Shown here: one piece after another, positions 1 to 34,427 of the stretch
Numbering within the stretch: the first letter of the stretch is position 1
Layout of the letters: each line of letters opens with the position of its first letter
From: an uncultured Prevotellaceae bacterium
GTDB taxonomy: Bacteria > Bacteroidota > Bacteroidia > Bacteroidales > Bacteroidaceae
Assembly (NCBI GenBank): GCA_946617675.1
Contig: CAMOKH010000098.1
Coordinates: forward strand, 1 to 37,414
Direction of reading: 5' to 3'
Length of the DNA: 37,414 nucleotides
Position numbers and translations under genes: made by a program
The notes under the pieces: generated by a model
The model's input: the letters and a program-made list of their open reading frames with translations, nothing else
Databases searched by the model: none
Told to the model about the DNA's origin: nothing

Positions 1-3000
1 GAACCACTGTGGCCTGTCCGCTGGCGTCGAGCGTCAGTTCTCCTTCCTTGTGGCTGACGATTCCATCGTCAGCACCGCTCACCTTGAGCTGCTTACCTTT
101 GGCTGCCTCGGCGGGCAGGATACTCACGGTGACGGTGCGCTCGCTGCCTTCGGCCATGTAGAGCAGGGTGTCGGTGACAATGGCCGTGATACGCTGTTCC
201 ACGTCGAACTCCTGCTGGAAGTCCTGCTCCATCTGCAGGCCTGCGTAGCTCTCTACGGTCTTACGGACTGTCAGGCCCACCCCTGACCCCTCCCCAAGGG
301 AGGGGAGGTTGGGTATGAAGCGTATTTTCGAGGCGTAGACGGAGTCGGGTGTCTCGTAGCCACTGTCGGCATTTAGTAGCTCTATGGTGCCGCCGATGGT
401 CTGTCCGCCGACGGTGACGAAGATATTGTCAGTGCTGAGCGTTGCCGGCCTCATATACTTGTCGAAGGTAATCTCGATGCCGTCGGTATATGCTTTCACC
501 TTCTTCACGCTGGGCTGTCGCAGCTGCGTCATGCCCACGTTCACCTCCAGTTGCGGCGGGGGCACGGGGAGCCACTCGCTGTAGGCGGTCTCGTAGCCCT
601 GCTTCTCGAACTTCACCTGCCACAGGCCCCGGGGAACGTCCCAGCCGTACTTGCCTTCAGCGTCGGTCAGCTGCGGGTTCACCTGCTCATAGTTCTCGGC
701 ATCCCACACCACGGTGCGCTCATGCAGGTCGCCATACATATCCTCCACCTCTTCCCTATAATAGCAGGTAGCGGTGACGCCCTCCAGCCGATTGCTGCTC
801 ACGCCCTCGTAAACGTAGCCCGAGGGGTCGCGCGTAGGCGTTGACTGTAGGTGTCGTTGCAGCTTGACAGCGCGGTTCAGGTTACCCGTTCCGTGCACCT
901 GGCGGTTCCAGCCACCCAGGGTACCGTCGGTCACCTCCCAGTCGGTCACAGGTGGCTCGGGGTCGGGCGGTACGCACTTCAGCCTTGAAATCCAGTTGCG
1001 GATATTTTGCTTGTCCTGATTTGAGATGTTAGGATGGACGAAACTCGTGGTAATCGATGCAATATCAATGGCCAGCGATACAAACCAGTGAGGAGCCAAA
1101 GGCAAGTCGAACACGTCGATAAGTAGCGATGCTGCGTCGGCGCCAATCTGTGTGATGTCAATACCACTGTGCCATGTGCAGTCGGTCTTGACCTGAGAAT
1201 AAAGCGCCGCCCAGTTAGCCTCGTCACCTATACAGGGGTCGTAACTCTTGACTATATCTACGAGTTCGCTCCATTCAAAGATGTCCTTGAAGTTGTCCTG
1301 AATCAGAATGACCAGCGGCGCTATCTGGAAGAAGGCACCGATGACCGTTCCGAAAACCTTGGCAAGGAATCCGCTGCCCTTGATAGCAAAGGAGCCCGAC
1401 GCCTTGATGGCTTCAATCGACTTCGGTATCTGCTCAAACAGAGCCTCAATCGGGGCTTTGTTCTTCAGAATGCCCTTCAGCAGATTCTTGATCTTGCCAA
1501 TCTCCGTTTCAAAGCCCTTCATGATGAAGTTACAACTCTTGGCGAAATCTTTCGTTTCTTCAGCCACACGGTCAACCTTCTGTATGGCGTTGCGCACCGA
1601 CTCCAGGTCGGCTTCTAAGCGACGGGCCATCTCCGGGTGCTGGGTTGTCTTCAAGCACTCTTGCAATATCTTCTCGCTTTCCTTCAATCGCGGGTAGTTC
1701 TGCTGGAGACGGGTTAGACGGGCCTCCTTCTCAGCCAGCTTCTTCCTATATCTTTCTATGTTGCTCTCCTCCTTGGCTATCCTCTCTTCGGCCTCGCGGG
1801 TGGCATTGGCTCCATATTTCTCTTTAATCTCTCTGTCCAGCGACGCCATGCCCTCTTTATACATACATTTCAAGGCCTCATCCAGCTTGTCACGCAGGCT
1901 CTTAGCCTCTGCGAGCGCGGTGCGGAACTGCTCCATCATTCCAATGCTTTGCTTCATCTTCTCGCCAATAGACACAAACTGGGTGGGCAAGACCGTGAAC
2001 GTGCGGATACACTCCTTGCTGATGAAGGCCTTCGGTGTGCCAATGCCGCCGTCGTGGATAATTTTGCCGTTCATGCGGGCGGGAGCGGCGCCCGTGCCGG
2101 GCTTCATCTCCATCTCGCGCTTGAGCATGGTCTTGGTGTCGATGATGCAGTAGTGTCCACCCTCCTGCAGCACGTAGAGTTTGTAGCCGTCGTCGGTGTC
2201 GTATTCCAGATAGCCGTCGCGCTTCAGCTGGGCGGTGTCGATGGCGGCGAGCGTCTTTTGTGTGTAGTAGCGGTCTACGCTGTCGCCGGGCGCCACAAAC
2301 TCGATGTCGCCCGTGGGCACCTCCAGTTCGTCATCGTAGCCGGCGTAGCAGAGCGACAGCATGTCCATGGTGTTGTCATACATCCGCTGACGCATCTCCT
2401 CCGTCAGCTTCTCCTCCTGCTCCAGGGTGGCTATTTCCTGCTTCAGGGCAGCTATCTCGCTCTGCAGGTCCTGCTCCTCATCGAGCACGCCGTTGGTCAT
2501 GGCCAGCAGCTTCTCAGTGAGCTGCAGCACCTCCTCGGCATCGGGGTTCTCACGGTTGCGGGCCAGGGCGGCATCAATCTCCGTGTAGTCAACCTGATAC
2601 TTCCGCCGGGCCTCGTCCATCAGGTCGTTGCCCACGATGATGCGCACCAGACTGTCGCGGCGCTGCAGGTCAGCCTGTGTAGGCTCGGCTATGTCATAGA
2701 GGGCGTCCAGCGCGTCATACTCCTTGGCGTGCTCAGCCTCCACGCCGCTGATGTCGAAGTCGGCCTTGGCGTCGAGATACATCTGCTGACCCTCTTTGTA
2801 GCCGAGCAGGATGTCCTTCTCTATATCGTCAATCTGAGCACGGCTGATGGTGGTGCTGCCAACGACGCTCCACTCCACCCACACGTTGCGGGGTAGGGCT
2901 TCGGTGTCGATGTCGCGCTCCACCATCCAGCAGCCTTTCTTCGTGTTGAAGCGTGCCGGCAGCAGCACCTGTGCGCTGTTGTCGAGTTCGATGCCCAGCA

Positions 3001-6000
3001 TCACGTCTGGGATTTTTGTAGGGTCGTTCACCACATCGTCGCCTGACATGAAGTTAATCTCAAACTTCACCGGCAGACTCGAGTGGTCGAGTGGCCAGCC
3101 GTATGACTGCTTGTTGACGGTCGAAGTGCGGAAGTCCCAGATGACGTGCTCTGTCAAGAAGTGCAGATTGTTGTAGAACGACATATCGACCACTGGCATC
3201 AGGTCGTTGATTGCAACGCGTACAATGGTTTTGGCCGTCTGCATGGTGTGGCCTTCGGGCGTGGTGATGACGGCATACACCTCGTGCTGCGACATATTAT
3301 ATGGCCTCACCAGGTTCACCTGAGCCGACCACGCTCCGCTCAGCAGGGCCTGCGTGTGGCCGATGAGTGCCGTGCCGTCGAAGATGTCAATCTGGGCATT
3401 CGCCGGAGCCATGCCGTTCACGGAAAGATGGCCCGTAGCCGAAGAAGTCTGCATGTCTATGGCCATGTCCTCAGCGTCGAAGGGAGCCGTGCCGATGGGC
3501 TGCTGGCGCTGCTGGCCAAAGAGGCTGAAGGTCACTGTGGCCGTAGGCAGCTGCTGGCCGCTCGCCGTGGGCACCACGCAGAAGCGCACCACGTCGGTAG
3601 CCTGCGGCAGGGGAACTATCACCTGACGATCCTTGACGGTGTAGTCGCCGCTGATGCTGTTGCCCACCATGATGCTGCCCTCCACCAGCTGGCAGCCCTC
3701 GGGCAGGTCGTACACCATGCTCACGTCGTCCAACTCCGCAGCGTAGGCGGCTTTGAAGTCGAGCTGCGTGCGCAGGCTGACATACTGGCCCACGATGACG
3801 TGGGTCTTGTTCACCGAGAAGCGCGTCTGCTCGCCAGTGTAGCTGAATTCGCTGTCGTCCATCAGGGGTATGGTGGCGTTGCTGACCTTCGTCACGTGGC
3901 CGCTCTTGATGTTCACGGGGTTCTCCACGATATGTCTGGCCGTCAGCCCCATCTGGCGGAGGGCCTCCAGGGTGGGTGCCGCCGTCACGATGCTGCTGTA
4001 GCCCATCGTGATGAGGGTGTAGTCGCCGTCGGGCAGGGTTCCCACGGTGAGCGTCGTGCCATTATAGCGGGCGTTGCCCACGAGGCGGCCGCCAGTGTCG
4101 TAGACGGCGCCCATCACCACCTGGTTGTCGGTGCTGGTGAACGATGCCTGGAGTATGCCCAGCTGGGTAATGCCGATGGTGGCCGTGGCATGCCCCATGG
4201 AGTCTACGCGGCAAGTGGTCTCCACAGGCATGAAGGCTCCGCTCTTGCTCGTGGCCGTGATGCGCAGCTGGGTGCCGGGTGCCCTGACGCTGTCGGTGAG
4301 TACCAGCAGGGGGAACTGCTCGCTCAGGGCGGTGACGTCGAGCTGATGGGTCATGTCATAGACGCTATAGCTCACGTCCGACGGGTTGTCGAAGTAGTCA
4401 TCCTCGTTAGTGTTCTCCTCATCGTCGGCCAACGACGGATGGTAATAGAGGTCGAGGTTGATGATGGTGCCTTCGAGGTTCTCCAACTGGCTGCTTACCG
4501 ATTGCTGGTCGGCCATGCTGGTTAGCTCCTGCGTCTGTTTCAGATAGCCGCCGGCGATGGCGGTAATGGTCGTCGGGGCGTCATAGACGGTCAGCGTCCA
4601 TCGGCCATCGTCGTCGGTCTGTACGGTCTGCGTCGTGGCATACAGGCCGTTGAGGCGCTGCACCACGGCCACACTGGCACCGCGCAGGGGCTGACCAGTG
4701 GTCGCGCTGCTGACGAGGCCGCTCACGACGACCTGTCGCAGGGGTGCCAGCGTCAGTCTGAGGATGCCCTCATTGGTGACGTGATAAGTGCTGTCGGCGG
4801 GCTGGCAGTAGCGGGTGCCGAGCGCGTCGCCCAGGCGGATGCTAAAGCGCACGCTGTCGCCTGTCACCTGGCCGGGGAGCGTAAGGCCCTTGGCGAGGTA
4901 ATTGCCACGGGTGTCGCTCCAGGTGCAGGTCACTCCCTGTCCTTCCGAAGCGGAAAGGATTGGCTTGCCTTGCAAGTCTGAGAACTGTAGGGTGACATCG
5001 ACGGGACGCTTCAGGTCGGCGAAGGCGGCCTTCACGTCGTGGTCGATGACGGCGATGGTGTCGATACGCCCGACGACGGCGCCGTTCTGCGTGCGCACGT
5101 ATGCGTTATAAGCGGTGTTGTGCAGCAGGTTGTTGAAAGTGTACTCCTTGCGGTCGGTCAGTATGTAGCGCTTCGCCAGTCCCGTCTGCAGGTTGACCAG
5201 TTCCAGGGCCATGTCGCGGTAGATGTCCATGTTGGTAATCAGCGGCAGGCTCAACGTCAGGCTGCTCACCTGCTCGGCCAGTGGCACAAGCGCCAAGTCC
5301 TTCCATCCGTCGGCAGCGGCATAGAGGCCCATCGACTCGGCTGGCACCTGGACGGTCAGGTTTTCGTTGGTGCCCTGAAACACGTCTTTGCCCAGGAGCG
5401 GCGGTGTGGTGGCATGACAGACCAGCTTCTGCAGATTGCTGCAGCCGGCAAAGGCACGTTCCTCGATGCGGGTGGTGGTGGCGGGCAGGTAGATGCTGGT
5501 GAGCTTCGTGTTGTTAGAAAACCGGCTCCAGCGTATGAAATCGAGTCCGGTGGTGCGGCTCATGTCTATAGAGAAGACATTGGGAAAGTCCTTGAATGCC
5601 GACCAGTCGTCGTAGGGGTTGTCAGCGTTGTTGTCCTGGGCACAGACGCCGGCCACGGTGACCGTCCGCAGCGCGCGGTAGTCGGGTGAGGCATTCTCGA
5701 TGGGCATGGCATCGCGCAGTGCATCGTAGAGCCGTCCGGGCTTGAAGTCAGTGACAATGAGGTCGCCGGTTTTCGCATTCCAGAAGTTGTGGCCAGGATT
5801 GGCGGGGTTCTCGGGGTTGTAGATGTAGTGGCAGACAATCTCGAAGTCGTGGTCGGGACAGGTGAAGACGTACTTCTGCTCACGCCCCACGACGTCGTCG
5901 CCCAGCGTCCAGTGACTGAAGTCGTAACCCGTGGCGGGATAGGCGGTGACAGCATATTCTTTGCCAGGTTCCACGTAATAGAAGTATTCGCTCTGTGCGC

Positions 6001-6187
6001 CCAGTCCCCAGGCGAAGGCACCGCCATTGGCGGGGTCCGACACGAGGTGGAGCACGACGTACTGCACGGTGTCGCCGTCCTCGCCCGGTCCGGGCGGATT
6101 CTCGGGGTTATAGCCGTCGGCACCGATTTGGGCATTCACGGCCAGCTGGCAGAGTAGCAGGCTGAGCAGGGTGATGATCTTTTTCAT
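1..6187 (-). CDS. Giant secreted multi-domain surface protein, C-terminus beyond window
   Basis: The frame is open from 6187 to the left edge, giving 2062 visible residues and no stop. It starts MKKIITLLSLLLCQLAVNAQ, a signal peptide. Approximate order: a Cys-poor N-terminal domain (25-160); BspA-type LRR_5 repeats (165-310, with LPATTTRIEERAFAGC); a carboxypeptidase-regulatory-like beta domain (485-555, VSGLVSSATTGQPLRGASV); Ig-like or beta repeats; a coiled coil (about 1210-1270); a second long coiled coil (about 1405-1580); a hydrophobic Gly-rich stretch (about 1600-1640, GSGFLAKVFGTVIGAFFQIA); another regulatory-like domain (about 1770-1870, DPSGYVYEGVSSNRLEGV); and a final beta domain cut by the window. 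The upstream gene ends 13 bases away and its stop overlaps the Shine-Dalgarno, so it is probably the last gene of a three-gene operon. The role is inferred as an adhesin or surface scaffold. No enzyme motif was seen. A C-rich palindrome is inserted in frame near residues 1960-1971. Confidence 0.85.
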   Translation of the reverse strand, partial: MKKIITLLSLLLCQLAVNAQIGADGYNPENPPGPGEDGDTVQYVVLHLVSDPANGGAFAWGLGAQSEYFYYVEPGKEYAVTAYPATGYDFSHWTLGDDVVGREQKYVFTCPDHDFEIVCHYIYNPENPANPGHNFWNAKTGDLIVTDFKPGRLYDALRDAMPIENASPDYRALRTVTVAGVCAQDNNADNPYDDWSAFKDFPNVFSIDMSRTTGLDFIRWSRFSNNTKLTSIYLPATTTRIEERAFAGCSNLQKLVCHATTPPLLGKDVFQGTNENLTVQVPAESMGLYAAADGWKDLALVPLAEQVSSLTLSLPLITNMDIYRDMALELVNLQTGLAKRYILTDRKEYTFNNLLHNTAYNAYVRTQNGAVVGRIDTIAVIDHDVKAAFADLKRPVDVTLQFSDLQGKPILSASEGQGVTCTWSDTRGNYLAKGLTLPGQVTGDSVRFSIRLGDALGTRYCQPADSTYHVTNEGILRLTLAPLRQVVVSGLVSSATTGQPLRGASVAVVQRLNGLYATTQTVQTDDDGRWTLTVYDAPTTITAIAGGYLKQTQELTSMADQQSVSSQLENLEGTIINLDLYYHPSLADDEENTNEDDYFDNPSDVSYSVYDMTHQLDVTALSEQFPLLVLTDSVRAPGTQLRITATSKSGAFMPVETTCRVDSMGHATATIGITQLGILQASFTSTDNQVVMGAVYDTGGRLVGNARYNGTTLTVGTLPDGDYTLITMGYSSIVTAAPTLEALRQMGLTARHIVENPVNIKSGHVTKVSNATIPLMDDSEFSYTGEQTRFSVNKTHVIVGQYVSLRTQLDFKAAYAAELDDVSMVYDLPEGCQLVEGSIMVGNSISGDYTVKDRQVIVPLPQATDVVRFCVVPTASGQQLPTATVTFSLFGQQRQQPIGTAPFDAEDMAIDMQTSSATGHLSVNGMAPANAQIDIFDGTALIGHTQALLSGAWSAQVNLVRPYNMSQHEVYAVITTPEGHTMQTAKTIVRVAINDLMPVVDMSFYNNLHFLTEHVIWDFRTSTVNKQSYGWPLDHSSLPVKFEINFMSGDDVVNDPTKIPDVMLGIELDNSAQVLLPARFNTKKGCWMVERDIDTEALPRNVWVEWSVVGSTTISRAQIDDIEKDILLGYKEGQQMYLDAKADFDISGVEAEHAKEYDALDALYDIAEPTQADLQRRDSLVRIIVGNDLMDEARRKYQVDYTEIDAALARNRENPDAEEVLQLTEKLLAMTNGVLDEEQDLQSEIAALKQEIATLEQEEKLTEEMRQRMYDNTMDMLSLCYAGYDDELEVPTGDIEFVAPGDSVDRYYTQKTLAAIDTAQLKRDGYLEYDTDDGYKLYVLQEGGHYCIIDTKTMLKREMEMKPGTGAAPARMNGKIIHDGGIGTPKAFISKECIRTFTVLPTQFVSIGEKMKQSIGMMEQFRTALAEAKSLRDKLDEALKCMYKEGMASLDREIKEKYGANATREAEERIAKEESNIERYRKKLAEKEARLTRLQQNYPRLKESEKILQECLKTTQHPEMARRLEADLESVRNAIQKVDRVAEETKDFAKSCNFIMKGFETEIGKIKNLLKGILKNKAPIEALFEQIPKSIEAIKASGSFAIKGSGFLAKVFGTVIGAFFQIAPLVILIQDNFKDIFEWSELVDIVKSYDPCIGDEANWAALYSQVKTDCTWHSGIDITQIGADAASLLIDVFDLPLAPHWFVSLAIDIASITTSFVHPNISNQDKQNIRNWISRLKCVPPDPEPPVTDWEVTDGTLGGWNRQVHGTGNLNRAVKLQRHLQSTPTRDPSGYVYEGVSSNRLEGVTATCYYREEVEDMYGDLHERTVVWDAENYEQVNPQLTDAEGKYGWDVPRGLWQVKFEKQGYETAYSEWLPVPPPQLEVNVGMTQLRQPSVKKVKAYTDGIEITFDKYMRPATLSTDNIFVTVGGQTIGGTIELLNADSGYETPDSVYASKIRFIPNLPSLGEGSGVGLTVRKTVESYAGLQMEQDFQQEFDVEQRITAIVTDTLLYMAEGSERTVTVSILPAEAAKGKQLKVSGADDGIVSHKEGELTLDASGQATVV
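273..308. repeat. C-rich palindromic element, single copy inside the giant protein gene
   Basis: A C-rich arm is followed by a hairpin CCCCTCCCC-AA-GGGAGGGG. It shares its arm and hairpin with the other copies in this window. On the coding strand it reads as PSLGEGSGVG and keeps the frame open, in a loop between two beta stretches. Confidence 0.75.
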
Positions 6188-6192
6188 AGTCA

Positions 6193-6201
6193 TTTCCTCC
6201 C
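6193..6201 (-). promoter_or_regulatory. Shine-Dalgarno deciding the start of the giant protein
   Basis: On the minus strand GGGAGGAAA precedes two in-frame ATGs, at 6193 and 6187. The GGAGG core is 8 bases from the ATG at 6187 and only 1 base from the other, so 6187 is chosen. The site overlaps the upstream gene's stop codon at 6201-6203, which suggests translational coupling. Confidence 0.6.
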
Positions 6202-14533: not shown

Positions 14534-15694
14534 ATGATCAATACAGAGGAATTACAGGACAAGCGCATCGCCGTGCTGCTCTCAGGCGGCGTCGACTCGT
14601 CGGTCGTCGTCTACGAGCTGGTGCGCCAGGGGCTGCACCCCGACTGCTTCTATATCAACATCGGCCCCGAGGAGCAAGAGCAGTGGGACTGCACGAGCGA
14701 GGAGGACCTGGAGATGGCCACGGCCGTCGCCGCGAAGTACGGTTGCCGCCTTGAGGTGGTCGACTGCCACCGCGAGTACTGGGACCAGGTGACGCGCTAC
14801 ACGATGGAGAAGGTACGCGCCGGGCTGACCCCCAACCCCGACGTGATGTGCAACCGTCTCATCAAGTTCGGTGCCTTCCACGAGAAGCGGGGCCACGACT
14901 ACGACCTCATCGCCACCGGGCATTATGCGCAGAAGGAGACCCACCCCCTGCCCCTCCCTGAATGGAGGGGAGTGGATAGTGATAGCGGTGGTAACTACTC
15001 CCCTCCCTGCAGGGAGGGGCTGGGGGAGAGTCTTTTCTGGCTCTGCACCAGCCCCGACCCCGTGAAGGACCAGACCGACTTCCTGGCCCAGATTTACGAC
15101 TGGCAGCTGGCGAAGGCCCTGTTCCCCATCGGCCACTACATGAAGGACGAGGTGAGGCTGATAGCCGAGCGCGAGCACCTCGTGAGCGCCCACCGGCGCG
15201 ACTCCCAGGGCATCTGCTTCTTAGGCAAGATCAACTACAACGACTACATACGCCGCTACCTCGGCGAGCAGCCCGGCGACGTCGTCGAGCTGGAGACGGG
15301 ACGCAAGATAGGCCAGCACCAGGGCCACTGGTTCCACACCATCGGCCAGCGCAAGGGGCTGGGCTTCGGTGGCGGACCGTGGTTCGTGGTCAAGAAGGAC
15401 GTCGGCCAGAACATCATCTACGTCAGCCACGGCTACGACCCCGCTACGGCCTACCGCCAGACGTTCCCCATCCGCGACTTCCACAGCATCAACGGCCAGC
15501 TGCCGCCGGAGCGCATCACGCTGAAGATACGCCACACGCCAGAGTTCCTGCCCGCCCGCCTGGAGCCGACCGGCGACGGCTGCTACACGGTCAGCGCCGA
15601 CGCCCCCATCCACGGCGTGGCTCCCGGCCAGTTCTGCGTCGTCTACGACGCTGCCCACCACCGCTGCTACGGTTCGGGCGAGATTACGGTCTGA
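14534..15694 (+). CDS. mnmA: tRNA 2-thiouridine synthase MnmA with an in-frame insertion
   Basis: It has 386 residues. MnmA uses ATP and sulfur to make 2-thiouridine at the wobble position (34) of tRNAs for Lys, Glu and Gln, in the cytoplasm. The PP-loop SGGVDSS (17-23) is intact. The catalytic Cys pair is present: C106 in NPDVMCNRLIKF and C228 in SQGICFLG. The C-terminal part carries GQRKGLGFGGGPWFV and a beta-barrel. Residues about 135-168 are abnormal: between TGHYAQKE and SLFWLCTSPDPVKDQ sits a Pro/Gly-rich stretch encoded by a C-rich inverted-repeat pair. The family has only a short loop there. The frame is preserved and the active-site motifs are whole, so the enzyme is probably functional. 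It follows the regulator gene by 12 bases and may be co-transcribed. Confidence 0.92.
   Translation: MINTEELQDKRIAVLLSGGVDSSVVVYELVRQGLHPDCFYINIGPEEQEQWDCTSEEDLEMATAVAAKYGCRLEVVDCHREYWDQVTRYTMEKVRAGLTPNPDVMCNRLIKFGAFHEKRGHDYDLIATGHYAQKETHPLPLPEWRGVDSDSGGNYSPPCREGLGESLFWLCTSPDPVKDQTDFLAQIYDWQLAKALFPIGHYMKDEVRLIAEREHLVSAHRRDSQGICFLGKINYNDYIRRYLGEQPGDVVELETGRKIGQHQGHWFHTIGQRKGLGFGGGPWFVVKKDVGQNIIYVSHGYDPATAYRQTFPIRDFHSINGQLPPERITLKIRHTPEFLPARLEPTGDGCYTVSADAPIHGVAPGQFCVVYDAAHHRCYGSGEITV
14935..15036. repeat. Paired C-rich palindromic element inside mnmA
   Basis: The left half (14935-14972) runs GGAGACCCACCCCCTGCCCC and then a TCCC...GGGG hairpin. The right half (14998-15036) is the same thing inverted, ending GGGGGAGAGTCTTTT. 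The two halves make one large inverted repeat around a 25-base centre, and each half has its own small hairpin. Confidence 0.85.
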
Positions 15695-18567: not shown

Positions 18568-20013
18568 TTAAAACGTCTCGTCGTAGCCCGGGTTCTGGAC
18601 GAGGCCGGGCTGCAGGCGCGTGTCATCAAGTTTAATGGGCCACGTAAACATATACTTGCGCGTCCAGAACTTCTGGCCGTTGACGGCCACCCACCACTCC
18701 GGCCGGCCGTTGCGCTTCAGCTCGAACCAGCGGTCGCCGTTCTCCAGGTAGAGTTCCTTGCGGCGCTCGCGGAGGATGGCCTGTATGAGCGGCGTCAGCG
18801 GGCGGCCCGTGGCGTCCTGCTTGACGAGGGTGTTGTTGTCCACCGCGGGCAGCGTCTCGATGGTGTAGGCATAGTCGGCGGTCAGTATGCGGTGGCGGCG
18901 GAAGTCGTTCAGCTCGGCCAGTGCCGAGTCCTGCTTGTCCAGGTGGTAGGCACACTCCATGGCGATGAGCGCCATCTCAGCCGAGCGCATACCCGAGAAC
19001 ATGAGCTTGCGGTTCTTGCGCTTGCGGTTGAAGAAGAGGTTGTTCTTACGGCGAATGTCGTTGGTACCCTCCACGAAGAGGTTGACGAAGTCGGCACTCA
19101 GCGGGCGCTCCGTCAGATACGTGTTAGCAGCGGCGATAGCCGCCTGATGCTCCGGTAGCCTGTTGCCCACAAGGAGCTGGTTGCCATTGATGCCATACTG
19201 CGTAGTCATCATCTTCACGTAGTCGTCGCCGGCGAGCAGGGGGTGGTTCCTGACCACCGTCTGGGCCTCGCGGCGGGCCTCCTGCCAGCGCCCGCACCAG
19301 TGGTAGAGGCGAGCCAGGTAGCCATGCAACACGTCATTGTTGAAGCGGTACATGTCGTTCTGAATGTCAAGGTTGAGGGCGGCTTTCAGGTCGCGCTCCG
19401 CCTGGTCGATGGTCTCCTGCATGGTTGAGCGCAGGGGGCGGGCCTCCATGTCGAACTCGGTGACGATGGGCACGCCGAGCTGGGCGTCGTCGGCCAGCGG
19501 CGGGGCGCAGAACATGCGCAGCAGCTGGTAGTAGGCCACGCCACGCAGGGCATAGGCCACGCCGAGGATGTCCTGTCCCTCGCGGGTGTCGCTGCCGTCC
19601 TTATAGTTGTCAAGGATGATGTTGCACTTGCCTATCAGTTCATACAAGTTGCCATAGAGACTCTGACGGGCCGACAGGTCGGTGCCGATGTAGGTGCGCA
19701 GGCGGTCGGTGCCTCCGGTCAGGTTGGTGGCCATGTTGTCGGCGTCGGCTTCCAGGAGCTCGGTCTCGCTGTACTCGCCGATGGCCTCGCCCGCTACGCC
19801 GGAGCCGTTGTCAATGTCATTGCAGAGGTTATGCACCAGGGCGGCGAAGTCCTCGGTGGTCTCAGGCACGGTGCGGTCGTAGGGCTTGATGTCGAGGAAA
19901 TCGTTGCAGGAGCAAAAGACCCCCACCCCGCCTCCCCCTATGAGGGGGAGGAGTAGATACACTGCATGCAGAAAACTGCTATATAAACCTTTCTTTATTC
20001 TATTCTTTTCCAT
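18568..20013 (-). CDS. SusD/RagB-type nutrient-binding lipoprotein with an altered signal peptide
   Basis: It has 481 residues. SusD-like lipoproteins sit on the outside of the outer membrane, bind a substrate and close over the SusC channel. Hallmarks are CNDFLDIKP after the lipid Cys, the TPR-like helices (AYALRGVAYYQLLRMFCAPP), and the C-terminal ILRERRKELYLENGDRWFEL. The signal peptide reads HAVYLLLPLIGGGGVGVFCSC, where the usual short L-S-S-C is replaced by a Gly-rich stretch encoded by a C-rich palindrome. The probable lipidated residue is C36, but C34 is also close. Export might be less efficient. SusC lies 52 bases upstream, and the whole translation start region lies between the two halves of the inverted element. 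Confidence 0.93.
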   Translation of the reverse strand: MEKNRIKKGLYSSFLHAVYLLLPLIGGGGVGVFCSCNDFLDIKPYDRTVPETTEDFAALVHNLCNDIDNGSGVAGEAIGEYSETELLEADADNMATNLTGGTDRLRTYIGTDLSARQSLYGNLYELIGKCNIILDNYKDGSDTREGQDILGVAYALRGVAYYQLLRMFCAPPLADDAQLGVPIVTEFDMEARPLRSTMQETIDQAERDLKAALNLDIQNDMYRFNNDVLHGYLARLYHWCGRWQEARREAQTVVRNHPLLAGDDYVKMMTTQYGINGNQLLVGNRLPEHQAAIAAANTYLTERPLSADFVNLFVEGTNDIRRKNNLFFNRKRKNRKLMFSGMRSAEMALIAMECAYHLDKQDSALAELNDFRRHRILTADYAYTIETLPAVDNNTLVKQDATGRPLTPLIQAILRERRKELYLENGDRWFELKRNGRPEWWVAVNGQKFWTRKYMFTWPIKLDDTRLQPGLVQNPGYDETF

Positions 20014-20067
20014 ACTTTTACATTTTGCTCCCCTCCCTCACAGGGAGGGGCTGGGGGTGGGTCTTTT
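19914..20067. repeat. Paired C-rich element enclosing the susD start
   Basis: The left half starts AAAAGACCCCCACCCC (19914) with a hairpin ending at 19953. The right half (20028-20067) is its inverse, ending CTGGGGGTGGGTCTTTT. The 74-base centre carries the susD start codon and most of its signal-peptide codons. The right half touches the susC stop codon. Confidence 0.85.
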
Positions 20068-23396: not shown

Positions 23397-26300
23397 TTAC
23401 TGGTGTTTTACGATGTCGATGTCGAATGCCTCAGGCCGCACGAGGTGGTCGAGGAAGTAGTAGCGGATGATGTTCTGGTAGTAGGGTCCGTACAGGCCGT
23501 GTCCCTGCTCGGGGAAGATCATCATGTCGAAGCGCTTGCCGGCCTTCTGCAGGGCGTCGGCCATGCGGTAGGTGGAGGCCACGGGGACGTTCTCGTCGAC
23601 CTCGCCGGTCATCAGCAGCAGGCGACCCTTCAGCCGGTCTGCCAGCTCCATGTTCGTGGGGATGGGCACCTTGTAGCCCTGGTAGGTGTCGGCCCACCAG
23701 TTGATGTAGACGTTGTTGTCGTGGTTGCCCGAGGCGGCGACGCCCACCTTGTAGAAATCGGGGTCCTGGAGCATGGCGGCCACGGTCTGGAAGCCGCCGC
23801 CGGAGTGGCCGTAGATGCCCACGCGGTCGAGGTCGATGAAGGGGTACTCATGTGCCAGCGTCTCGATGGTGTGGCGCGTGTCGGCCAGCGGGTAGTCGCG
23901 CAGGTTGCCGTAGCCGTAGCTGTAAAAGGCCTTGTCGCGCAGGGGCGACGAGCCGCGGGTCTGCACGTTGATGACGACGAAGCCCAGCTCGGCCAGCGAC
24001 TGGTTGCCGATGTCGTCGACGGTGAACTGGCGGGGAATCTGGTCGTCCTGCGGCCCGGGGTAGACGTTGGCGATGACGGGGAGCGTGTTAAGGGAAGAGT
24101 GAAGAGTGAAAAGTGAAGAGTGAAGGAAGGAGGGCGTGTACATCACACCGTAGAGGTCGGTCGTGCCGTCGGCGGCTTTCACCTTGACGAGTGTGGGCTT
24201 CACCCAGCCGGCCTTGAGGCAGTCGGCCTCAGAGGTACGGAAGAACTCGTGGTGGTTCTTGGGACGGCCGACGCTGACGACATTATAGACGGGCGGCAGG
24301 TCCATGCGCGAGTAGCGGTCGATGGCCCACTGGCCGTCGGCCGAGAACTGCAGGGAGTGCTCGCCCTCGCCGTAGCTGAGCAGCTGCTGGTGGCGGCCGT
24401 CGAGGTCCACCTTATAATAATAGGTGTAGTTGGGGTCGCCCGGTTCCTGACCGTAGCCGAGGAAGATGATGCTGCGGGCGGCGTCGTCGACCTTCTCTAT
24501 GCGGCCGGCCACGAGGCGGTCGCCCTGGGTGACGCGGTTCAGTAACTTTCCACTGCGGCCGTCGTAGAGATAGTAGTTGCCGCGGCCGGTGCGGTCGCTC
24601 CACCACAGCACCTGACGGCCGTGATCCAACAGGTGGTAACGGAACATATTGACGTTGACGTGGGGCTTGCACACCTCGCTGATGACAACACTGACGTCGC
24701 CTGTGGGAATGTCAATGCGGCAGAGCTGCAGGGTGTCCACCGTGCGCGAGCGGCGCAGGAAGTACTGCGCGTCGCCGGTCTTGTCGTAGTCCAGCTGAAC
24801 GAAGTCGTCGGCATTGGCGGCGATGGGCAACAGGCGCCCCTCGCCCTTGTCGGCGTTATACCAGTAGAGCCGGTACTTGCGTGCGCCGTTGCCACCGGGC
24901 AGCGGCATCTTCTTCTGCTCCAGCCTGGGCGGGTTATCCATCGTGTGGACGAGATTGAGGAAGTTCACCTCGGAGTCGTCGTAGACCATGCAGAAGTAGA
25001 CGTGGCCGCGCCAGAAGCCCGAGGCATTGCCTTCGCGCAGGGTGTCGCGGGCGCCGCGGCTGCAGTAGCTGGCGTATTCGCGGCCGTCGGTGGTCAGCTG
25101 GGTGACAGCGCCGGTCTTGTTGTTGCGGACATGGAGATTATAGCGGTCGCCGAGCATGGTGAAGGCCGAGTCGGCCGTATAGGCCTTGTAGCCGCCGAAG
25201 CGGAAACGGTCGCCGCTGGCGTCGAGCTTCTTGGGGTGATTCTTCTTGTAGGCGTCGATGACGGCCTGGTCCTTCAGCGTCGTCTTGCCGGTACGGCAGT
25301 CCACCATGTACGCCTTGCCCTCGTGCTTGTAGGTGACGTAGGGCGTGGCGTCGACGAACGATGGCGACGGTGACAGGTGCGAGGTGTGGACGTTCTTCTC
25401 GCTGACGGCCTCGGCGCGGTACCAGGCTTCGGCAGAGAGCAGGCGCTCCACGGCGCGCAGCATATCGACCGTGCCGCCGCTGATGCTGACCTTCGTGCCG
25501 TCCATAGGCCGCGCGGTCTCCATCAGCAGGTCTCTCACCTGGGCGGCCTTCAGGAAGGGGAAGTAGCTGCGTAGCAGGGCGGCCACGGCTGTGACGACGG
25601 GCGCCGAGAGGCTGGTGCCTTGCGACAGGCTGTACTTGTTGCCGGGGAAGACCGAGGCGATGTAGGTGCCGGGTGCAAAGAGGTGGACGGTCTTGCTGCC
25701 GTAGTTCGACATCTTGGCGCAGTGCCCCTGCTCGTCGTTGGCACCTATGCGTAGGAAGTTGGGCAGGAAGCGCCCCATGCGGTCGGTGCCTGAGGGGAAG
25801 GAGGCAATGCTGTCGAGGTCGTAGCTGTTGTTGCCGGCGGCACAAATGACGAGCACGTCGCGGTCGGCGGCATAGCGTATGGCGTCGTTCACCATGCGCT
25901 CCTGGGGCGAGTAGTACTTGCCGAGGCTGATGTTGATGACGCGGGCGCCATTGTCCACGGCATAGTATATAGCGGATGCAATGTCCTTGTCGTACTCGTC
26001 GCCGTCGGGGCTGGCGCGTACTATCATGAGCCGGGCCACGTCCTTGGCAATGCCGTCGAAACGGTGGTCCTGGCTACAGTCGCCGCCGATGACGCCGGCC
26101 ACAAACGTGCCGTGCTCGCAGCCCTCGAGGGTCAGTGTCGGGTTGCCATAGTAGCGGTCGTCGGCGTCGTCCATGTCGTCGCCCATGAGCAGGCGCTTGT
26201 CCTTGTCGTGCTCTATGCCGTGGATGTTCTTGGCCATCTCTTTCAGACGGACGAGCGACATGGAGTCGAGACGGTCCAACGACTGGCTGGCAATCTCGTA

Positions 26301-26898: not shown

Positions 26899-28446
26899 CT
26901 ACTCCACCTGAGCTGCCGGCCAGTTGACGAGAAACAGCCGCTCAGTGGCCCGGGTGAAGGCGGTGTAGAGCCAGTGCAGATAGTCTGGGCCGAGCATGTC
27001 GTCGGTCATGTAGCCCTGGTCGATGTAGACGTGGCTCCACTGTCCGCCCTGTGCCTTGTGGCAGGTGACGGCGTAGGCGAACTTCACCTGCAGGGCGTTG
27101 TAGTAGCGGTCCTCCTTCAGCCGTTTCAGGCGGTCGGCCTTCAGGGACACGTCGGCGTAGTCGTCCATCACGCGATCGTAGAGCTGCTGTTGCTGCTCGC
27201 GGGTGAGCGACGGCGACTCCGACGTGAGCGTGTCTAAGAGCACCATCGCCGTCAGCTCGTAGTCGTCGTAGTCGGGCAGCAGCAGCGTCACCTCGGCGAA
27301 GTGGAAGCCGTACTGCTCGTGGACATTGCGTATGCGCTCAACCGTGGCCACGTCGCCGTTGGCAAGGAAAGCCCCCTCCAAACCTCCCCCCGAAGGGGAG
27401 GCTTCCTTTCCGCCCCATCCCTCCAAACCTCCCCCCGAAGGGGAGGCTTCATTTCCCCCTCTTCGGGAGGGGGTCAGGGGGAGGCTTTCACCTCTTCGCG
27501 AGGGGGGCAGGGTGAGGCTATAGTTGTTCTTCACGATCATGAGCCGGTCGCCCCGGCAGAGCAGTTCCTCGCGGTCGAGCACGGTATTACGGATGCCCTG
27601 GTTGTAGATGTTGGCGCGCTTGTTTGAGCGGGTGATGACGATGGTGTCGTCCTGGCCGACCTGGCTGTAGCTCGAGGCCAGCTGCTCTATCAGCTCGTCG
27701 CCGGGCACGACGCGGAGGTCGGCGAAGCCGCTGAGACGGACTTTGGGCGCAGCAGTTCCCCCTCCTTGGGAGGGGGCCAGGGGGAGGCTCCTGAAGCGCG
27801 TGGCGTTCCACAGTATGCCCGACTCGCTGGCCTGGCGCAGCACCTCGTTGAGCGCCGTCTCACAGACGGTCAGGCCGTAGCCGCGCAGCACGCCGGCCGA
27901 CAGGGCCGGACTCTGCGTCTCGCCCACCGGCGGCAACTGGGCCGCGTCGCCGATGAGCAGCAGGCGGCAGTTGCTGTCGGAGCCGTAGACGTAGGCGATG
28001 AGGTCGTCGAGCAGGCAGCCCGAGCCGAAGGCACTGTCGCCCAGCCCCTGGTTGGAGATCATCGACGCCTCGTCGACGATGAAGAGCGTGTCGCGCTGCA
28101 GGTTGACGTTCAGGTTGAACACAGAGAGGTCGCCTGCCGTCCGCTGGCGGTAGATGCGGCGGTGGATGGTGAAGGCGGGATGGCCGGCATACTGGGCGAA
28201 GACCTTGGCGGCGCGCCCCGTCGGCGCGAGGAGCACCATTTTCTGTTTCAGGGCGTCGAGGGCGCGGACGATGGCGGCGGCCAGCGTGGTCTTGCCCGTA
28301 CCGGCCGAGCCGCGCATGAGCATCACCACGCGGCTGTCCCTACAGGCCATGAAGTCGGCAAAGAGGCCGATGGCGCGCTCCTGCTCGGCCGTCGGCGGCA
28401 GGCCCAGCGACTGGCGTATGCGATATTTTATCTCGTCAGTTATCAT
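26899..28446 (-). CDS. RecD-like ATP-dependent DNA helicase with two repeat insertions
   Basis: It has 515 residues. It is a superfamily 1 helicase, acting on DNA in the cytoplasm. Walker A is GSAGTGKT (46-53), Walker B is LFIVDEAS (121-128), then GDAAQLPPVGETQSPAL. The C-terminal UvrD_C_2-like part has VTCHKAQGGQWSHVYID and LYTAFTRATERLFLVNW. Residues about 218-231 (LAPSQGGGTAAPK) and about 308-360 (PPSRRGESLPLTPSRRGG onward) are foreign-looking Pro/Gly/Ser-rich stretches from C-rich elements. All helicase motifs remain on either side. The gene is beside a DUF3822 gene in divergent orientation, as often in Bacteroidota. Whether it acts in recombination or repair is not known from sequence. 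It starts at 28446, just past a divergent promoter pair. Confidence 0.9.
   Translation of the reverse strand: MITDEIKYRIRQSLGLPPTAEQERAIGLFADFMACRDSRVVMLMRGSAGTGKTTLAAAIVRALDALKQKMVLLAPTGRAAKVFAQYAGHPAFTIHRRIYRQRTAGDLSVFNLNVNLQRDTLFIVDEASMISNQGLGDSAFGSGCLLDDLIAYVYGSDSNCRLLLIGDAAQLPPVGETQSPALSAGVLRGYGLTVCETALNEVLRQASESGILWNATRFRSLPLAPSQGGGTAAPKVRLSGFADLRVVPGDELIEQLASSYSQVGQDDTIVITRSNKRANIYNQGIRNTVLDREELLCRGDRLMIVKNNYSLTLPPSRRGESLPLTPSRRGGNEASPSGGGLEGWGGKEASPSGGGLEGAFLANGDVATVERIRNVHEQYGFHFAEVTLLLPDYDDYELTAMVLLDTLTSESPSLTREQQQQLYDRVMDDYADVSLKADRLKRLKEDRYYNALQVKFAYAVTCHKAQGGQWSHVYIDQGYMTDDMLGPDYLHWLYTAFTRATERLFLVNWPAAQVE
27368..27521. repeat. Cluster of four C-rich elements inside the helicase gene
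   Basis: Units at about 27368-27405, 27411-27450, 27453-27489 and 27491-27521. The first two are direct copies with a 45-base period, and the last two are inverted relative to them. The exact 45-base step gives a 15-residue repeat in the protein (EASPSGGGLEG twice). Confidence 0.85.
27755..27794. repeat. Single C-rich element, second site in the helicase gene
   Basis: TTCCCCCTCCTTGGGAGGGG then GCCAGGGGGAGGCTCCTGAAG, in the inverted orientation. It is translated as SLPLAPSQGGGT. Confidence 0.8.
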
Positions 28447-30110: not shown

Positions 30111-30117
30111 AAAGACG

Positions 30118-32068: not shown

Positions 32069-32086
32069 GTCACTGCTGTAGCGGAG

Positions 32087-32419
32087 TCAGTCTTTCTCGT
32101 AGATGGCGATGTTGCCCTCGCTCTCCTGGACGGAGGCCTTGTAGCAGTAGGGCACGCGCTCCACCACCCAGCGGGCCAGGTTCTCAGCCGTAGGGTTGAA
32201 GTCGAGCACGTCGTTGAGCACCTGGTGGTCGAGCGGCTTCTTGACGAGCCGCTTAATCTCGCTGAAGTCAACGACCATGCCGTTGCGGTCGAGCTGCTCG
32301 GAACGGCAGTAGACGATGATAATCCAGTTATGACCGTGTACGCGCGTACACTTACTCTCGTAGTCAAGGTCGAGCCTATGGCAGGCCGAAATCTCTATTT
32401 TCTTCTGAACGTAATACAC
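32087..32419 (-). CDS. queD: 6-carboxy-tetrahydropterin synthase (QueD)
   Basis: It has 110 residues. It makes 6-carboxy-tetrahydropterin from dihydroneopterin triphosphate, the substrate of QueE. Zinc ligands H14 (SACHRL), H28 and H30 (VHGHNW) and catalytic C24 (KCTRVHGH) are present. The start is GTG at 32419, since no in-frame ATG exists upstream. A 7-base array occupies the region directly before it. The dnaG stop lies 55 bases upstream and rsmD follows by 18 bases, so the three are likely one transcript. Confidence 0.9.
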   Translation of the reverse strand: MYYVQKKIEISACHRLDLDYESKCTRVHGHNWIIIVYCRSEQLDRNGMVVDFSEIKRLVKKPLDHQVLNDVLDFNPTAENLARWVVERVPYCYKASVQESEGNIAIYEKD

Positions 32420-32423
32420 CGAT

Positions 32424-32465
32424 ATTCTATTTACGATTTACTATTTTCGATTTACGATTTATAAT
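32424..32465. repeat. Heptamer array before queD
   Basis: Six units of about TTACGAT (ATTCTAT, TTACGAT, TTACTAT, TTTCGAT, TTACGAT, TTATAAT). It fills most of the 55-base gap between dnaG and the queD GTG, where a ribosome site would be. Confidence 0.7.
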
Positions 32466-32474
32466 TACCTCCTC

Positions 32475-34427
32475 TCACTTCATCACATCGCTGCCCAGTC
32501 GGCGGGCCAGCAGGTCGCGCAGCTGCTGCGTGTCCTTGTATTCAGCCATCAGCTGCATGATGCGCTCCATGTCGCCGGTAGCCTGACGCATGGCCGCCTG
32601 TATCTCCTTCAGCCGCTGGCTGACAATGGTCATGCGCAGGTCCATGACGAGATGGACGACGCGCTGGCGCAGCGAACCCTCGCGGGGCTGCAGCACGAAG
32701 CGCCCACCGAGCTGGTGGCGGTCAACGGCCAGCCGCGCCGCCGTCTGGCTCACGGCGATGTCGGGGTGACTCGTGAAGAAGGTCTCGGCCTTGAAGCCCA
32801 CGTCGCCGCTATGCTCAACGGCCTCGGCCAGCATCTGGTTGTAGAGCGGGTCGGCGAAGGTCAGCCCGTCCTGTCCCAGGTCGAAGGCAATATACTGGGC
32901 CACGTTGAAACTTGCGGTGGTGCCGTCGTCCATCTCGACGTCGGCGTAGATGACCTCTTCGCCGTGGCGCACGACCTCGCGCATCAGGAGGGTCTCTACG
33001 GCAGGCCCTCCCCCTGCCCCTCCAGAGGGGAGTGTGGGCTGAGTACTCTGCTGCGGACTGTCTGCCACTGTGGGCCCCGCGCTCTCCTCCCTTGGTGAGG
33101 AGCCGGGGGTGGGCCTTTCTTTCTCCTCACGGACGAAGTTGTTCATCGTCCTGATGAGCGTCGGCTCCTTCAGGCCCAGGCGTGCGGCGAGGGTACTGAG
33201 ATAGGTGTCGCGCAGTATGGGGTCGGGAATCACCGAGATGCTCTTGACGATGGCGGTGATGGCCTCTGAGCGCTTCACGGGGTCGCTGACGCCCTCGACG
33301 GTCAGCCGGGTCTTGAACTCGATAAAGTCCTGCTGGTTCTCGTCGATATACTGCTTCAGCTGTTCGGTAGAGTGCTTGCGGGCAAAGGAGTCGGGGTCGT
33401 CGCCGTCGGGCAGCAGCAGCACCTTCACGTTCATGCCCTCCTGGAGCAGCATGTCGGTGCCGCGCATGGCGGCGTGGATGCCGGCCTCGTCGCCGTCGTA
33501 GAGCAGGGTGATGTTGTTGGTGAACCGCCGCAGCATCTTAATCTGGTAGACCGAGAGCGCCGTGCCCGAGTTGGCCACCACGTTCTCGATACCCGCCTGG
33601 TGCATGGCGATGACGTCGGTATAGCCCTCGACCATGAAGACGCGGTCCTCCTTGACGATGGCCCGCTTGGCCTGATAGATGCCATAGAGCTCGCGCTCCT
33701 TGTGGTAGATGTCCGAGTCGGGCGAGTTGACGTACTTCTGGGCCACGCCCTTCGTCCGCGAGTCGAGTACGCGCCCGCCGAAGGCCACCACCTTGCCCGA
33801 GACGTTCAGCCAGGGGAAGATGGCCCGGCCGGCATAGCGGTCATACAACCCGCGCTCGTGCTCGATGCACAAGCCCGTCTTGACGAGGAATTCCTTCTGG
33901 TAGCCCTTGGCCGTGGCGGCCGTGTAGAGCGCGTCGCGACGCTGGGGCGAGTAGCCCAGCTGGAACTTCTCGATGATGTCGTCGCGAATGCCGCGGCTGC
34001 GGAAGTACTGCTTGCCGATGGCCAGCCCGTCGGGGTCGTTCTTCAGCACGCCGTGGAACCAGTCCTTGGCCCACTCGTTGACGATGAACATCGACTCGCG
34101 CTCGTTCTGCTGCTGGCGCTCCTCGTCGGTCAGCTCCTTCTCTACAATCTCGATGTTGTACTTCCGGGCCAGCCAGCGCAGCGCCTCGGGGTAGGTTATC
34201 TGCTCGTGCTCCATCAGGAACCCGGCGGGCGTACCACCCTTGCCGCAGACGAAGCAGTGGCAGATGTTCTTGGCCGGACTGACCATGAACGACGGGTTGC
34301 GGTCGTCGTGGAACGGGCACAGGCCCTTGTAGTTCACGCCGCTCTTGCGGAGCGTCACGAACTCGCTGACCACGTCGACGATTTGCGCCGCGTTGATAAT
34401 CTTGTCTACTGTCGCCCGGTCTATCAT
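32475..34427 (-). CDS. dnaG: DNA primase with a repeat-coded linker
   Basis: It has 650 residues. It makes RNA primers at the replication fork. The CHC2 zinc domain has C37, H40, C58 and C61 (GLCPFH, CHCFVCGKGG). The catalytic core has FGGRVLDSRTKG and the TOPRIM motifs MVEGYTD (about 265) and DGDEAG (about 309). A C-terminal DnaB-interacting-like helical region (about 480-650) follows. Residues about 436-475 (PTPGSSPREESAG, then QPTLPSGGAGGGP) are a Pro/Gly/Ser-rich linker encoded by a paired C-rich element, placed at the join between the core and the C-terminal domain. The start at 34427 lies 5 bases after a 7-base array that replaces a normal leader. It is downstream of the esterase gene. 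Confidence 0.95.
   Translation of the reverse strand: MIDRATVDKIINAAQIVDVVSEFVTLRKSGVNYKGLCPFHDDRNPSFMVSPAKNICHCFVCGKGGTPAGFLMEHEQITYPEALRWLARKYNIEIVEKELTDEERQQQNERESMFIVNEWAKDWFHGVLKNDPDGLAIGKQYFRSRGIRDDIIEKFQLGYSPQRRDALYTAATAKGYQKEFLVKTGLCIEHERGLYDRYAGRAIFPWLNVSGKVVAFGGRVLDSRTKGVAQKYVNSPDSDIYHKERELYGIYQAKRAIVKEDRVFMVEGYTDVIAMHQAGIENVVANSGTALSVYQIKMLRRFTNNITLLYDGDEAGIHAAMRGTDMLLQEGMNVKVLLLPDGDDPDSFARKHSTEQLKQYIDENQQDFIEFKTRLTVEGVSDPVKRSEAITAIVKSISVIPDPILRDTYLSTLAARLGLKEPTLIRTMNNFVREEKERPTPGSSPREESAGPTVADSPQQSTQPTLPSGGAGGGPAVETLLMREVVRHGEEVIYADVEMDDGTTASFNVAQYIAFDLGQDGLTFADPLYNQMLAEAVEHSGDVGFKAETFFTSHPDIAVSQTAARLAVDRHQLGGRFVLQPREGSLRQRVVHLVMDLRMTIVSQRLKEIQAAMRQATGDMERIMQLMAEYKDTQQLRDLLARRLGSDVMK
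33000..33120. repeat. Paired C-rich element inside dnaG
   Basis: The left half (33000-33034) is GGCAGGCCCTCCCCCTGCCC with a CCCTC...GAGGGG hairpin; the right half (33083-33120) is its inverse, ending GCCGGGGGTGGGCC. Together they form a pair around a 48-base centre. Confidence 0.8.

What the first reader, a model, noticed from the sequence alone, without database searches (positions are those of the whole stretch)
273..33120. A palindromic element family inserted in frame inside conserved genes
Copies at 273-308, 14935-15036, 19914-20067, 27368-27521, 27755-27794 and 33000-33120 share an arm (AAAGAC or GCC, then C-rich) and a CCCCTCCC/GGGAGGGG hairpin. They are often paired head to head. All but part of one lie in reading frames that remain open, in linkers or loops of mnmA, dnaG, a helicase, susD and a surface protein. 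The Rickettsia palindromic elements are the known parallel. The family seems able to insert or persist as peptide spacers without killing the host gene.
Basis: partly seen in the sequence, partly recalled or inferred. Interest (0 to 1): 0.85.

Follow-up and report, generated by a model that had tools for sequence, protein, structure and literature searches.

The report
Nuclease-linked palindromes inside conserved genes
A Prevotella-type gut bacterium carries dozens of short palindromic DNA repeats, many of them read in frame inside conserved genes, and copies of the same kind of repeat bracket the gene of a predicted endonuclease that in several bacteria itself sits in frame inside housekeeping genes, so this nuclease likely spreads the repeats.

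Summary
In detail: all six places hold C-rich palindromes, in open frames of BspA-like, mnmA, susD, helicase and dnaG genes (one arm lies between genes). The genome, an incomplete Prevotella-type MAG, has 62 perfect copies (control 0). Close pairs are inverted, tags outward, in 24 of 25. The helicase cluster is absent from two relatives; in other species the same loops hold other palindromes or tandem repeats. New here: such units bracket a DUF559 gene (predicted nuclease, homing-endonuclease-like fold) at 30 of 42 testable loci, against 3 of 1000 random sites and 0 of 40 viral DUF559 loci; this includes the window's own genome. In 15 of the 42 the nuclease lies in a long open frame; 12 of 14 scanned carry a named host, among them LeuS, CCA-transferase, ABC-F, guanylate kinase, ArgB and IspF. 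Palindrome-rich genus genomes all carry DUF559 (7 of 7 versus 9 of 29); the RAYT transposase shows no such link. Best reading: the palindromes are likely non-autonomous ends of an unspliced, in-frame, nuclease-encoding mobile element. Mobility is inferred. It works like Rickettsia palindromic elements and REPs; membership in either is not shown.

The parts
273..312 (+). single unit (CAA-loop type) in the BspA-like/CarboxypepD_reg ORF 2-6193 (-), read as PNLPSLGEGSGVGL
   Evidence: shared with sister G124; plain coding DNA of similar length in G125
14935..15036 (.). head-to-head pair in mnmA (14534-15694, +), units 14937-14976 (+) and 14993-15033 (-), read as THPLPLPEWRGVDSDSGGNYSPPCREGLGESL
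   Evidence: shared with G124, other elements in the same loop elsewhere; AF2 residues 141-163 pLDDT<50 between two strands
19914..20067 (.). head-to-head pair around the susD start codon: arm 1 (19914-19957) inside the susD reading frame in its signal-peptide region (inferred; my gene caller put the start downstream of it), arm 2 (20028-20067) at the susC stop
27368..27521 (.). cluster of four hairpin units in the helicase ORF 26899-28446 (-), read as SLTLPPSRRGESLPLTPSRRGGNEASPSGGGLEGWGGKEASPSGGGLEGAF
   Evidence: near-empty in G124 and G125; two of its four units are nearest to those around the DUF559 gene in the CCA-transferase of this genome
27755..27794 (-). single unit in the same helicase ORF, read as SLPLAPSQGGGTAA
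   Evidence: in the alignment the window is 21 nt longer than G124 and 9 nt longer than G125, which carry other sequence there
33000..33120 (.). diverged head-to-head pair in the dnaG linker (32475-34427, -)
   Evidence: partly shared with G124; same unit family in the DnaG linker of G086 (L179)

Best explanation
The palindromes are likely the non-autonomous ends of a mobile element whose full form is two inverted palindromic units around the gene of a predicted DUF559 nuclease (PD-(D/E)XK type, homing-endonuclease-like fold), a form that is also found in frame inside host genes. Shown: the units, their orientation, their dispersal, the DUF559 gene between them, the in-frame host genes. Inferred: the nuclease cuts or nicks DNA at or near permissive sites; the element or a bare pair of units is copied in during repair, with the C/G-rich hairpins as ends; insertions that keep the reading frame and fall in surface loops survive as Pro/Gly-rich spacers, others are purged; the nuclease gene is then lost (it is shortened in sister G124), leaving head-to-head pairs and finally single degenerate hairpins. 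The nuclease is not spliced out of the host gene as far as sequence can tell.
For: (1) Units bracket DUF559 genes: 30 of 42 distinct cellular loci with both flanks have an inverted repeat of score >=14, 27 of them with a hairpin stem >=6, versus 3 of 1000 random cores (0 of 400) and 0 of 40 viral DUF559 loci. In all 26 bracketing arms of at least 24 nt the C-rich half is on the outside, as in the dispersed pairs (24 of 25). (2) In the window's genome three of the four DUF559 matches lie between units like the window's; the fourth has another palindrome (L280). All 12 window units score above the best of 200 shuffles against six bracketing units of this genome, two only just. (3) Genus genomes with >=20 palindromes: DUF559 in 7 of 7 versus 9 of 29 (p=0.0014); RAYT 4 of 7 versus 16 of 29 (p=1). 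(4) 15 of 42 DUF559 loci lie in open frames over 250 aa; Pfam or NCBIfam names a host in 12 of the 14 scanned: LeuS twice at the same site, CCA-transferase, ABC-F, guanylate kinase three times, ArgB, IspF, RNase H, a helicase, an aminotransferase. (5) Nuclease fold: 3hrl and homing endonuclease I-Bth0305I are the best PDB matches. (6) One site: intact nuclease in G000, shortened in G124, a different palindrome pair in G125, A+T-rich repeats in G126.
Against: No mobility or cleavage was observed. No target-site duplication or target consensus was defined. G032 (97% complete, 12 palindromes) has no DUF559 match, and with a threshold of one palindrome the co-occurrence is not significant (12 of 22 versus 4 of 14, p=0.18). 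12 of 42 DUF559 loci show no inverted repeat by the test, and of the 15 in long frames only nine do. Only 2 of 9 plasmid DUF559 loci are bracketed. In the histidine kinase a native strand lies between the two units, which a block insertion does not explain. The same loops also collect tandem repeats without palindromes, so loop tolerance alone explains part of the pattern. The window holds no nuclease gene that I found.
Confidence: 0.66

Rival explanations
1. The units are REPs mobilised by a RAYT (HUH, Y1) transposase, as in enterobacteria; DUF559 is a bystander.
For: Inverted head-to-head hairpins with a tag are REP architecture (PMC3733652), and 7 of 50 aligned units carry GTAG one base outside the stem. 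Y1_Tnp is common in relatives, 39 of 60 genomes. RAYT loci have their own inverted repeats, 12 of 28.
Against: No Y1_Tnp in G000 (the MAG is 56% complete). No strong unit match in the 28 RAYT loci tested, one weak (L059); their repeats have other sequences. No association with palindrome number (4 of 7 versus 16 of 29). G019 (91% complete) has 47 palindromes and no Y1_Tnp.
Confidence: 0.12
2. DUF559 is a parasite of the palindromes: it cuts palindromic repeats that spread by some other means and inserts itself between the two units of a pair.
For: Units far outnumber nucleases (62 perfect palindromes versus 4 DUF559 matches in G000). G032 has palindromes without DUF559. Different unit families are bracketed.
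Against: Palindrome-rich genus genomes all carry DUF559 (7 of 7). In G000 the bracketing units resemble the window's. In G016 the loop of the units around one nuclease (L264) is found in 11 of its 32 perfect palindromes, the two bracketing ones included.
Confidence: 0.17
3. No mobility: G/C-rich hairpins arise and persist in permissive loops and gene ends by slippage, template switching and gene conversion.
For: Loops also hold unrelated tandem repeats. Some sites show replacement rather than insertion. Native spacer in the kinase.
Against: A 36-40 nt oriented consensus is shared by dozens of loci, the orientation rule is nearly absolute, and the same kind of unit brackets a nuclease gene.
Confidence: 0.05

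Closest known systems
Rickettsia palindromic elements (RPE) and Wolbachia palindromic elements
   Same: Short palindromic repeats dispersed between and inside genes, in frame, without stops, in unrelated host proteins (passages read in PMC4316617 and PMC4224334).
   Different: Sequences were not compared. No nuclease partner is described in the passages I read. Here close pairs have one fixed orientation and a DUF559 gene is bracketed by the units.
REP/REPIN with RAYT (REPtron), GTAG-tagged REPs
   Same: 20-40 nt tagged hairpins, mostly head-to-head pairs, a gene bracketed by the same repeats, some copies inside genes (PMC3733652: sections 6 and 15, part 1 of section 17, and passages).
   Different: A GTAG motif next to the stem is present in only 7 of 50 aligned units. 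The bracketed gene is a predicted PD-(D/E)XK nuclease, not an HUH transposase.
CGTC-tagged REPs (include RPE-4, RPE-6 and dRS3)
   Same: Head-to-head dimers, 8-9 bp stems, intragenic copies; reported to lack a dedicated transposase (PMC3733652).
   Different: The described CGTC stems begin with A-T pairs, these with C-G pairs. Whether DUF559 partners CGTC repeats was not shown; four Azospirillum DUF559 loci have no bracketing repeat, three of the four were seen to have C/G hairpins nearby.
Inteins with homing endonucleases
   Same: A nuclease gene in frame inside conserved genes (that inteins occur in such genes is recalled and in abstracts seen in the listing).
   Different: No Hint splicing domain reported by Pfam in the ten fused frames scanned at E 1e-8. 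Palindromic ends are translated. The nuclease is a Vsr-like PD-(D/E)XK domain.
I-Bth0305I, a Vsr-like homing endonuclease (PDB 3r3p, 'mobile intron protein')
   Same: Same predicted fold and weak sequence similarity (E 0.003).
   Different: No intron seen: no Rfam family in seven fused or bracketed loci.

Membership tests
Rickettsia palindromic elements | Dispersed palindromic repeat read in frame inside protein genes | tested here: met
Rickettsia palindromic elements | Sequence relationship to a described RPE family | not tested
   no RPE sequences were fetched
REP/RAYT (REPtron) | Inverted pairs of tagged hairpins | tested here: met
   24 of 25 close pairs '+-'; consensus
REP/RAYT (REPtron) | Unpaired GTAG tag at one end | tested here: inconclusive
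   GTAG one base outside the stem in 7 of 50 units, not in the consensus
REP/RAYT (REPtron) | A Y1/RAYT gene bracketed by the same repeat | tested here: not met
   none found in G000, 56% complete; no strong unit match at 28 RAYT loci; their repeats differ
CGTC REP | 8-9 bp stem that begins with A-T pairs | tested here: not met
   consensus stem CCCCTCCC/GGGAGGGG against the description in PMC3733652 section 6; the tag was not compared with the figures
MITE | Terminal inverted repeats around a short core | tested here: met
MITE | Target-site duplication of fixed length | tested here: inconclusive
   alignments show no clean duplication; not searched systematically
Intein | Hint splicing domain around the nuclease | tested here: not met
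   Pfam on ten fused frames lists host domains and DUF559, no Hint domain (cut-off 1e-8, so a weak match could be missed)
Group I/II intron | Intron RNA around the nuclease gene | tested here: not met
   no Rfam match at gathering score in 7 loci; frames continuous
Homing endonuclease | Fold of a homing endonuclease with conserved active-site-like residues | tested here: met
   D57, E68, D70 and H74 invariant in 46 of 46 homologues, all at least 76% identical to the first; catalytic role inferred
Homing endonuclease | Cleavage of the unoccupied site followed by copying | not testable with these tools
   needs biochemistry

The most novel reading that the evidence does not exclude
A new class of mobile element: an unspliced in-frame homing element, made of a Vsr-like DUF559 nuclease between translated palindromic ends, that inserts itself into conserved genes as a fusion partner. 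Its nuclease-free derivatives are the C-rich palindromes seen in Prevotella-type genomes; units of the same architecture bracket DUF559 genes in other Bacteroidales and on some cyanobacterial plasmids. DUF559 could be the missing mobiliser of the 'orphan' palindromic repeats that lack a transposase.
Probability: 0.42. Interest if true: 0.95.

Novelty: new variant of a known kind. Interest (0 to 1): 0.85.

Why it matters
Palindromic repeats inside bacterial genes have been known since the Rickettsia elements, but CGTC-type repeats, which include two RPE families, were reported to lack a dedicated transposase (PMC3733652). A predicted nuclease gene bracketed by palindromic repeats, and sitting in frame inside leucyl-tRNA synthetase, CCA-transferase and others, gives a concrete candidate driver that can be tested with one purified protein. 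If right, it also gives Pfam's DUF559, 'protein of unknown function', a role, and shows an element that lives inside conserved genes by being translated rather than spliced.

Tried and rejected
RAYT as partner: rejected as the main reading. The idea that the units are specially stop-free: not supported. dN/dS of DUF559: only 2 of 66 pairs gave a finite dS, so not used; residue conservation is used instead. Intron: no Rfam match. Phage carriage: no match in the phage collection at E 1e-15; 41 distant viral-contig relatives served as a control. Plasmids: 9 records, none from Bacteroidota; 2 of 9 bracketed. A strict count of C-rich stems in the MnmA loop (stem >=6, GC >=0.75) gave only 6 of 37 long loops and 0 of 41 short ones; 18 of 37 have any stem >=6 against 25 of 234 control segments.

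Papers: for PMC3733652 I saw sections 6 and 15, part 1 of 17, and passages; for PMC6006769 sections 23 and 25 and passages; PMC12907096, PMC1829167, PMC4316617 and PMC4224334 only passages; all others only search listings with the start of the abstract. 'No report found' rests on searches, in an open-licence library without preprints; of the 14 papers that mention DUF559 I saw passages of two and the listing of the rest.
Full report
1. Observation. The window is contig C98 of an unnamed assembly, G000 (2.14 Mb, 117 contigs, 56% complete). The nearest named mnmA relatives are uncultured Prevotella/Prevotellaceae MAGs, several with rumen or reindeer in their names. G000 has 62 perfect CCCCTCCC..GGGAGGGG palindromes and none of the reversed control, plus 26 of the CCTCCCC..GGGGAGG form against 1 (the two sets overlap). 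Among 60 genomes searched (G000 counted) 23 have the first form: 22 of 36 in the genus and 1 of 24 outside it.

2. Anatomy. Fifty oriented copies align to a unit of about 38 nt: a tag (AAGCCC or AGACYC), a C tract, CCCCTCCC, a loop (CAA or TGTGA are commonest), GGGAGGGG, then often AGT(RRTTAC). With a profile of this unit I mapped 70 units in 27 own-genome stretches (151.7 kb, coding density 0.88 by a simple codon-score gene caller): 40 fully inside predicted genes, 12 partly, 18 between genes. The stretches were picked because they hold palindromes; one search listed 50 of the 62 palindromes, and the other 12 were not fetched. Of 25 neighbours no more than 120 nt apart, 24 point towards each other ('+-'), one is '--', none '-+'.

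3. Hosts and empty sites. Host genes include an ABC exporter, an RND pump, a glycyl-radical enzyme, a histidine kinase and Mfd. In the first three the units fall in the gap between two segments aligned to a PDB homologue; in Mfd they lie in an unaligned stretch before the second segment. In the window, the helicase cluster is near-empty in sister G124 and in G125; at 27755 these two have other sequence, 21 and 9 nt shorter. The 273 unit and the mnmA pair are shared with G124 (95% identical over 15.6 kb). G125 has ordinary coding DNA of almost the same length at 273 and a different element in mnmA. So insertion and in-place replacement both seem to occur.

4. Hot loops. In 81 MnmA proteins (window and the best 80) the loop between GHYAQ and FWL could be measured in 78; 37 are at least 18 aa and 18 of these contain a stem of at least 6 bp, against 25 of 234 control segments. 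The inserts are different palindromes or tandem repeats in different species. DnaG and the helicase (29 relatives each) behave alike, as does the ABC exporter loop: among the query and the 120 best-scoring homologues it is short, or filled with unit pairs of differing spacer, or with Asn-Gly-Thr-like repeats. In the kinase (120 best homologues) an empty form is NAVESIGTTQGLVTLEVTTPATLTITDNGHG, and in the occupied form two units sit in the two turns that flank a native strand. An AlphaFold model of the window's MnmA puts residues 141-163 at pLDDT below 50 between two strands.

5. The nuclease. Two '+-' pairs with long gaps (L032 397 nt, L033 423 nt) each enclose one ORF, found again between units in G125 and G124; the one other '+-' pair more than 120 nt apart (L047, 197 nt) was not examined. 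The ORF is Pfam DUF559, PF04480 (1.4e-33). The closest PDB sequences are 3hrl (1e-16) and 3r3p, a 'mobile intron protein' (0.003). The AlphaFold model (of P0245, 98% identical; pLDDT 84) matches 3hrl and 3r3p (homing endonuclease I-Bth0305I) with E below 0.001, and Vsr further down (E 0.09). D57, E68, D70 and H74 are invariant in 46 of 46 homologues, all at least 76% identical to the first; that these are catalytic is inferred.

6. Bracketing. DUF559 was searched in the same 60 genomes: 28 have a match, 58 match rows. Nine rows, mostly partial, were not fetched. I examined 50 loci (L249-L296, L032, L033): three had no tblastn hit, one was a duplicate (L258 = L032), and four had a flank under 300 nt, leaving 42. 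An inverted repeat of score >=14 between the 400-nt flanks is present in 30, with an internal stem >=6 in 27. Controls: 3 of 1000 random cores, 0 of 40 viral-contig DUF559 loci (one of 41 lacked flanks). RAYT loci gave 12 of 28, with other sequences, their own repeats; for 16 of these the gene was assumed central. In all 26 DUF559 arms of 24 nt or more the C-rich half is outside, the same polarity as the dispersed pairs. In G000, DUF559 at C60, C70 and C76 lies between such units; C103 has another palindrome. Against the six units around the first three, the mnmA and susD units are nearest to C60, two of the five helicase units to C76, the rest to C60 or C70 (mononucleotide shuffles, and two of the 12 matches are marginal).

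7. In-frame nucleases. Fifteen of the 42 DUF559 loci lie in an open frame over 250 aa; nine of these show the inverted repeat. Fourteen were scanned and 12 have a named host: LeuS in G054 and G037 (two families of the order, same site after GRSEGAE; in G037 the aligned T. thermophilus enzyme has three residues there), CCA-transferase in G000 itself, ABC-F (G028), guanylate kinase (G009, G029, G016), ArgB (G019), IspF (G028), RNase H (G016), a helicase (G030), an aminotransferase (G001). For CCA-transferase, RNase H and the aminotransferase the NCBIfam score is under the curated cut-off though the E-value is below 1e-49. L265 and L277 gave only DUF559; by eye they and the unscanned L291 continue into RNase H-like or acetyltransferase-like sequence. 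Junction peptides look like the palindromes in translation, for example KAPSNLPPLGEAS and KASPSGGRLEGAS in CCA-transferase beside EASPSGGGLEGAF in the window's helicase. For guanylate kinase, RNase H and IspF the nuclease forms the N-terminus, so fusion there could also be read as two genes without a stop between them. No Hint domain and no Rfam intron was found.

8. Co-occurrence. Counting four genomes with only partial DUF559 matches as negative (G007, G017, G020, G040), genus genomes with >=20 palindromes carry DUF559 in 7 of 7 (G000 among them), the rest in 9 of 29 (p=0.0014); with >=5, 10 of 13 versus 6 of 23 (p=0.0052); with >=1, 12 of 22 versus 4 of 14 (p=0.18). Spearman 0.51 (p=0.0013). 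RAYT shows none of this in the genus. The thresholds are mine, genomes are related and many are incomplete, and the palindrome count misses other unit families.

9. Turnover. At the L032 site G000 has the intact nuclease, G124 a shortened one (407 against 500 nt between flanks), G125 a 132-nt stretch with a different palindrome pair, G126 108 nt with A+T-rich repeats. The neighbouring pair at 1933-2102 is occupied in all four, with diverged units in G125 and G126.

10. Wider. Nine plasmid records hold a DUF559 relative at E 1e-15. Two cyanobacterial ones are bracketed (scores 40 and 16), one more scores 13, the other six 11 or less. The Pseudanabaena unit occurs at 20 places in 13 plasmid records, all of genera that I know as cyanobacterial, and a Bacteroidales DUF559 (L295) is bracketed by a very similar one.

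11. Reading. The bracketing, the shared polarity and the in-frame nucleases make a nuclease-encoding element with palindromic ends the simplest account, with the window's palindromes as its non-autonomous remains. The cutting and copying step is inferred. The kinase case, the missing target-site signature, and G032 are unexplained. It works like RPEs and REPs; membership in either is not claimed. In the searches listed I found no report of DUF559 bracketed by repeats. [quoted passage not shown]

Noticed in passing
window 34417-34506, 24067-24136, 36121-36162: Head-to-tail 7-mer arrays (CTCTTAC, GTGAAGA); similar tandem repeats fill the same protein loops in other Prevotella.
   Followed up: partly
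window 19914-20013: The first arm of the susD pair appears to supply the hydrophobic stretch before the lipoprotein cysteine (LLLPLIGGGGVGVFCSC); inferred from the reading only.
   Followed up: no
L048, L049, L050 (G016): Three RAYT genes bracketed by their own unrelated palindromes (AAGCCCCAYGTTGGCGAGC...), apparently ordinary REPtrons in the genus.
   Followed up: partly
L237/L238 (G126), the site of L032 2836-3336: A+T-rich palindromic repeats (ACGAATTATACGAATTAT) occupy the site where relatives carry the nuclease element or C-rich pairs.
   Followed up: no
L122, MnmA: Insert in the MnmA loop includes a second copy of the GHYAQTE stretch, a possible flank duplication.
   Followed up: no
L339 1298-1337 (Pseudanabaena plasmid): A CCCCCTAAATCCCCC..GGGGG unit brackets a cyanobacterial DUF559 gene and is repeated on cyanobacterial plasmids.
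   Followed up: partly
L032 1933-2102: A unit pair near a gene start is kept in four related genomes, with diverged units in two, which may mean a regulatory use.
   Followed up: no
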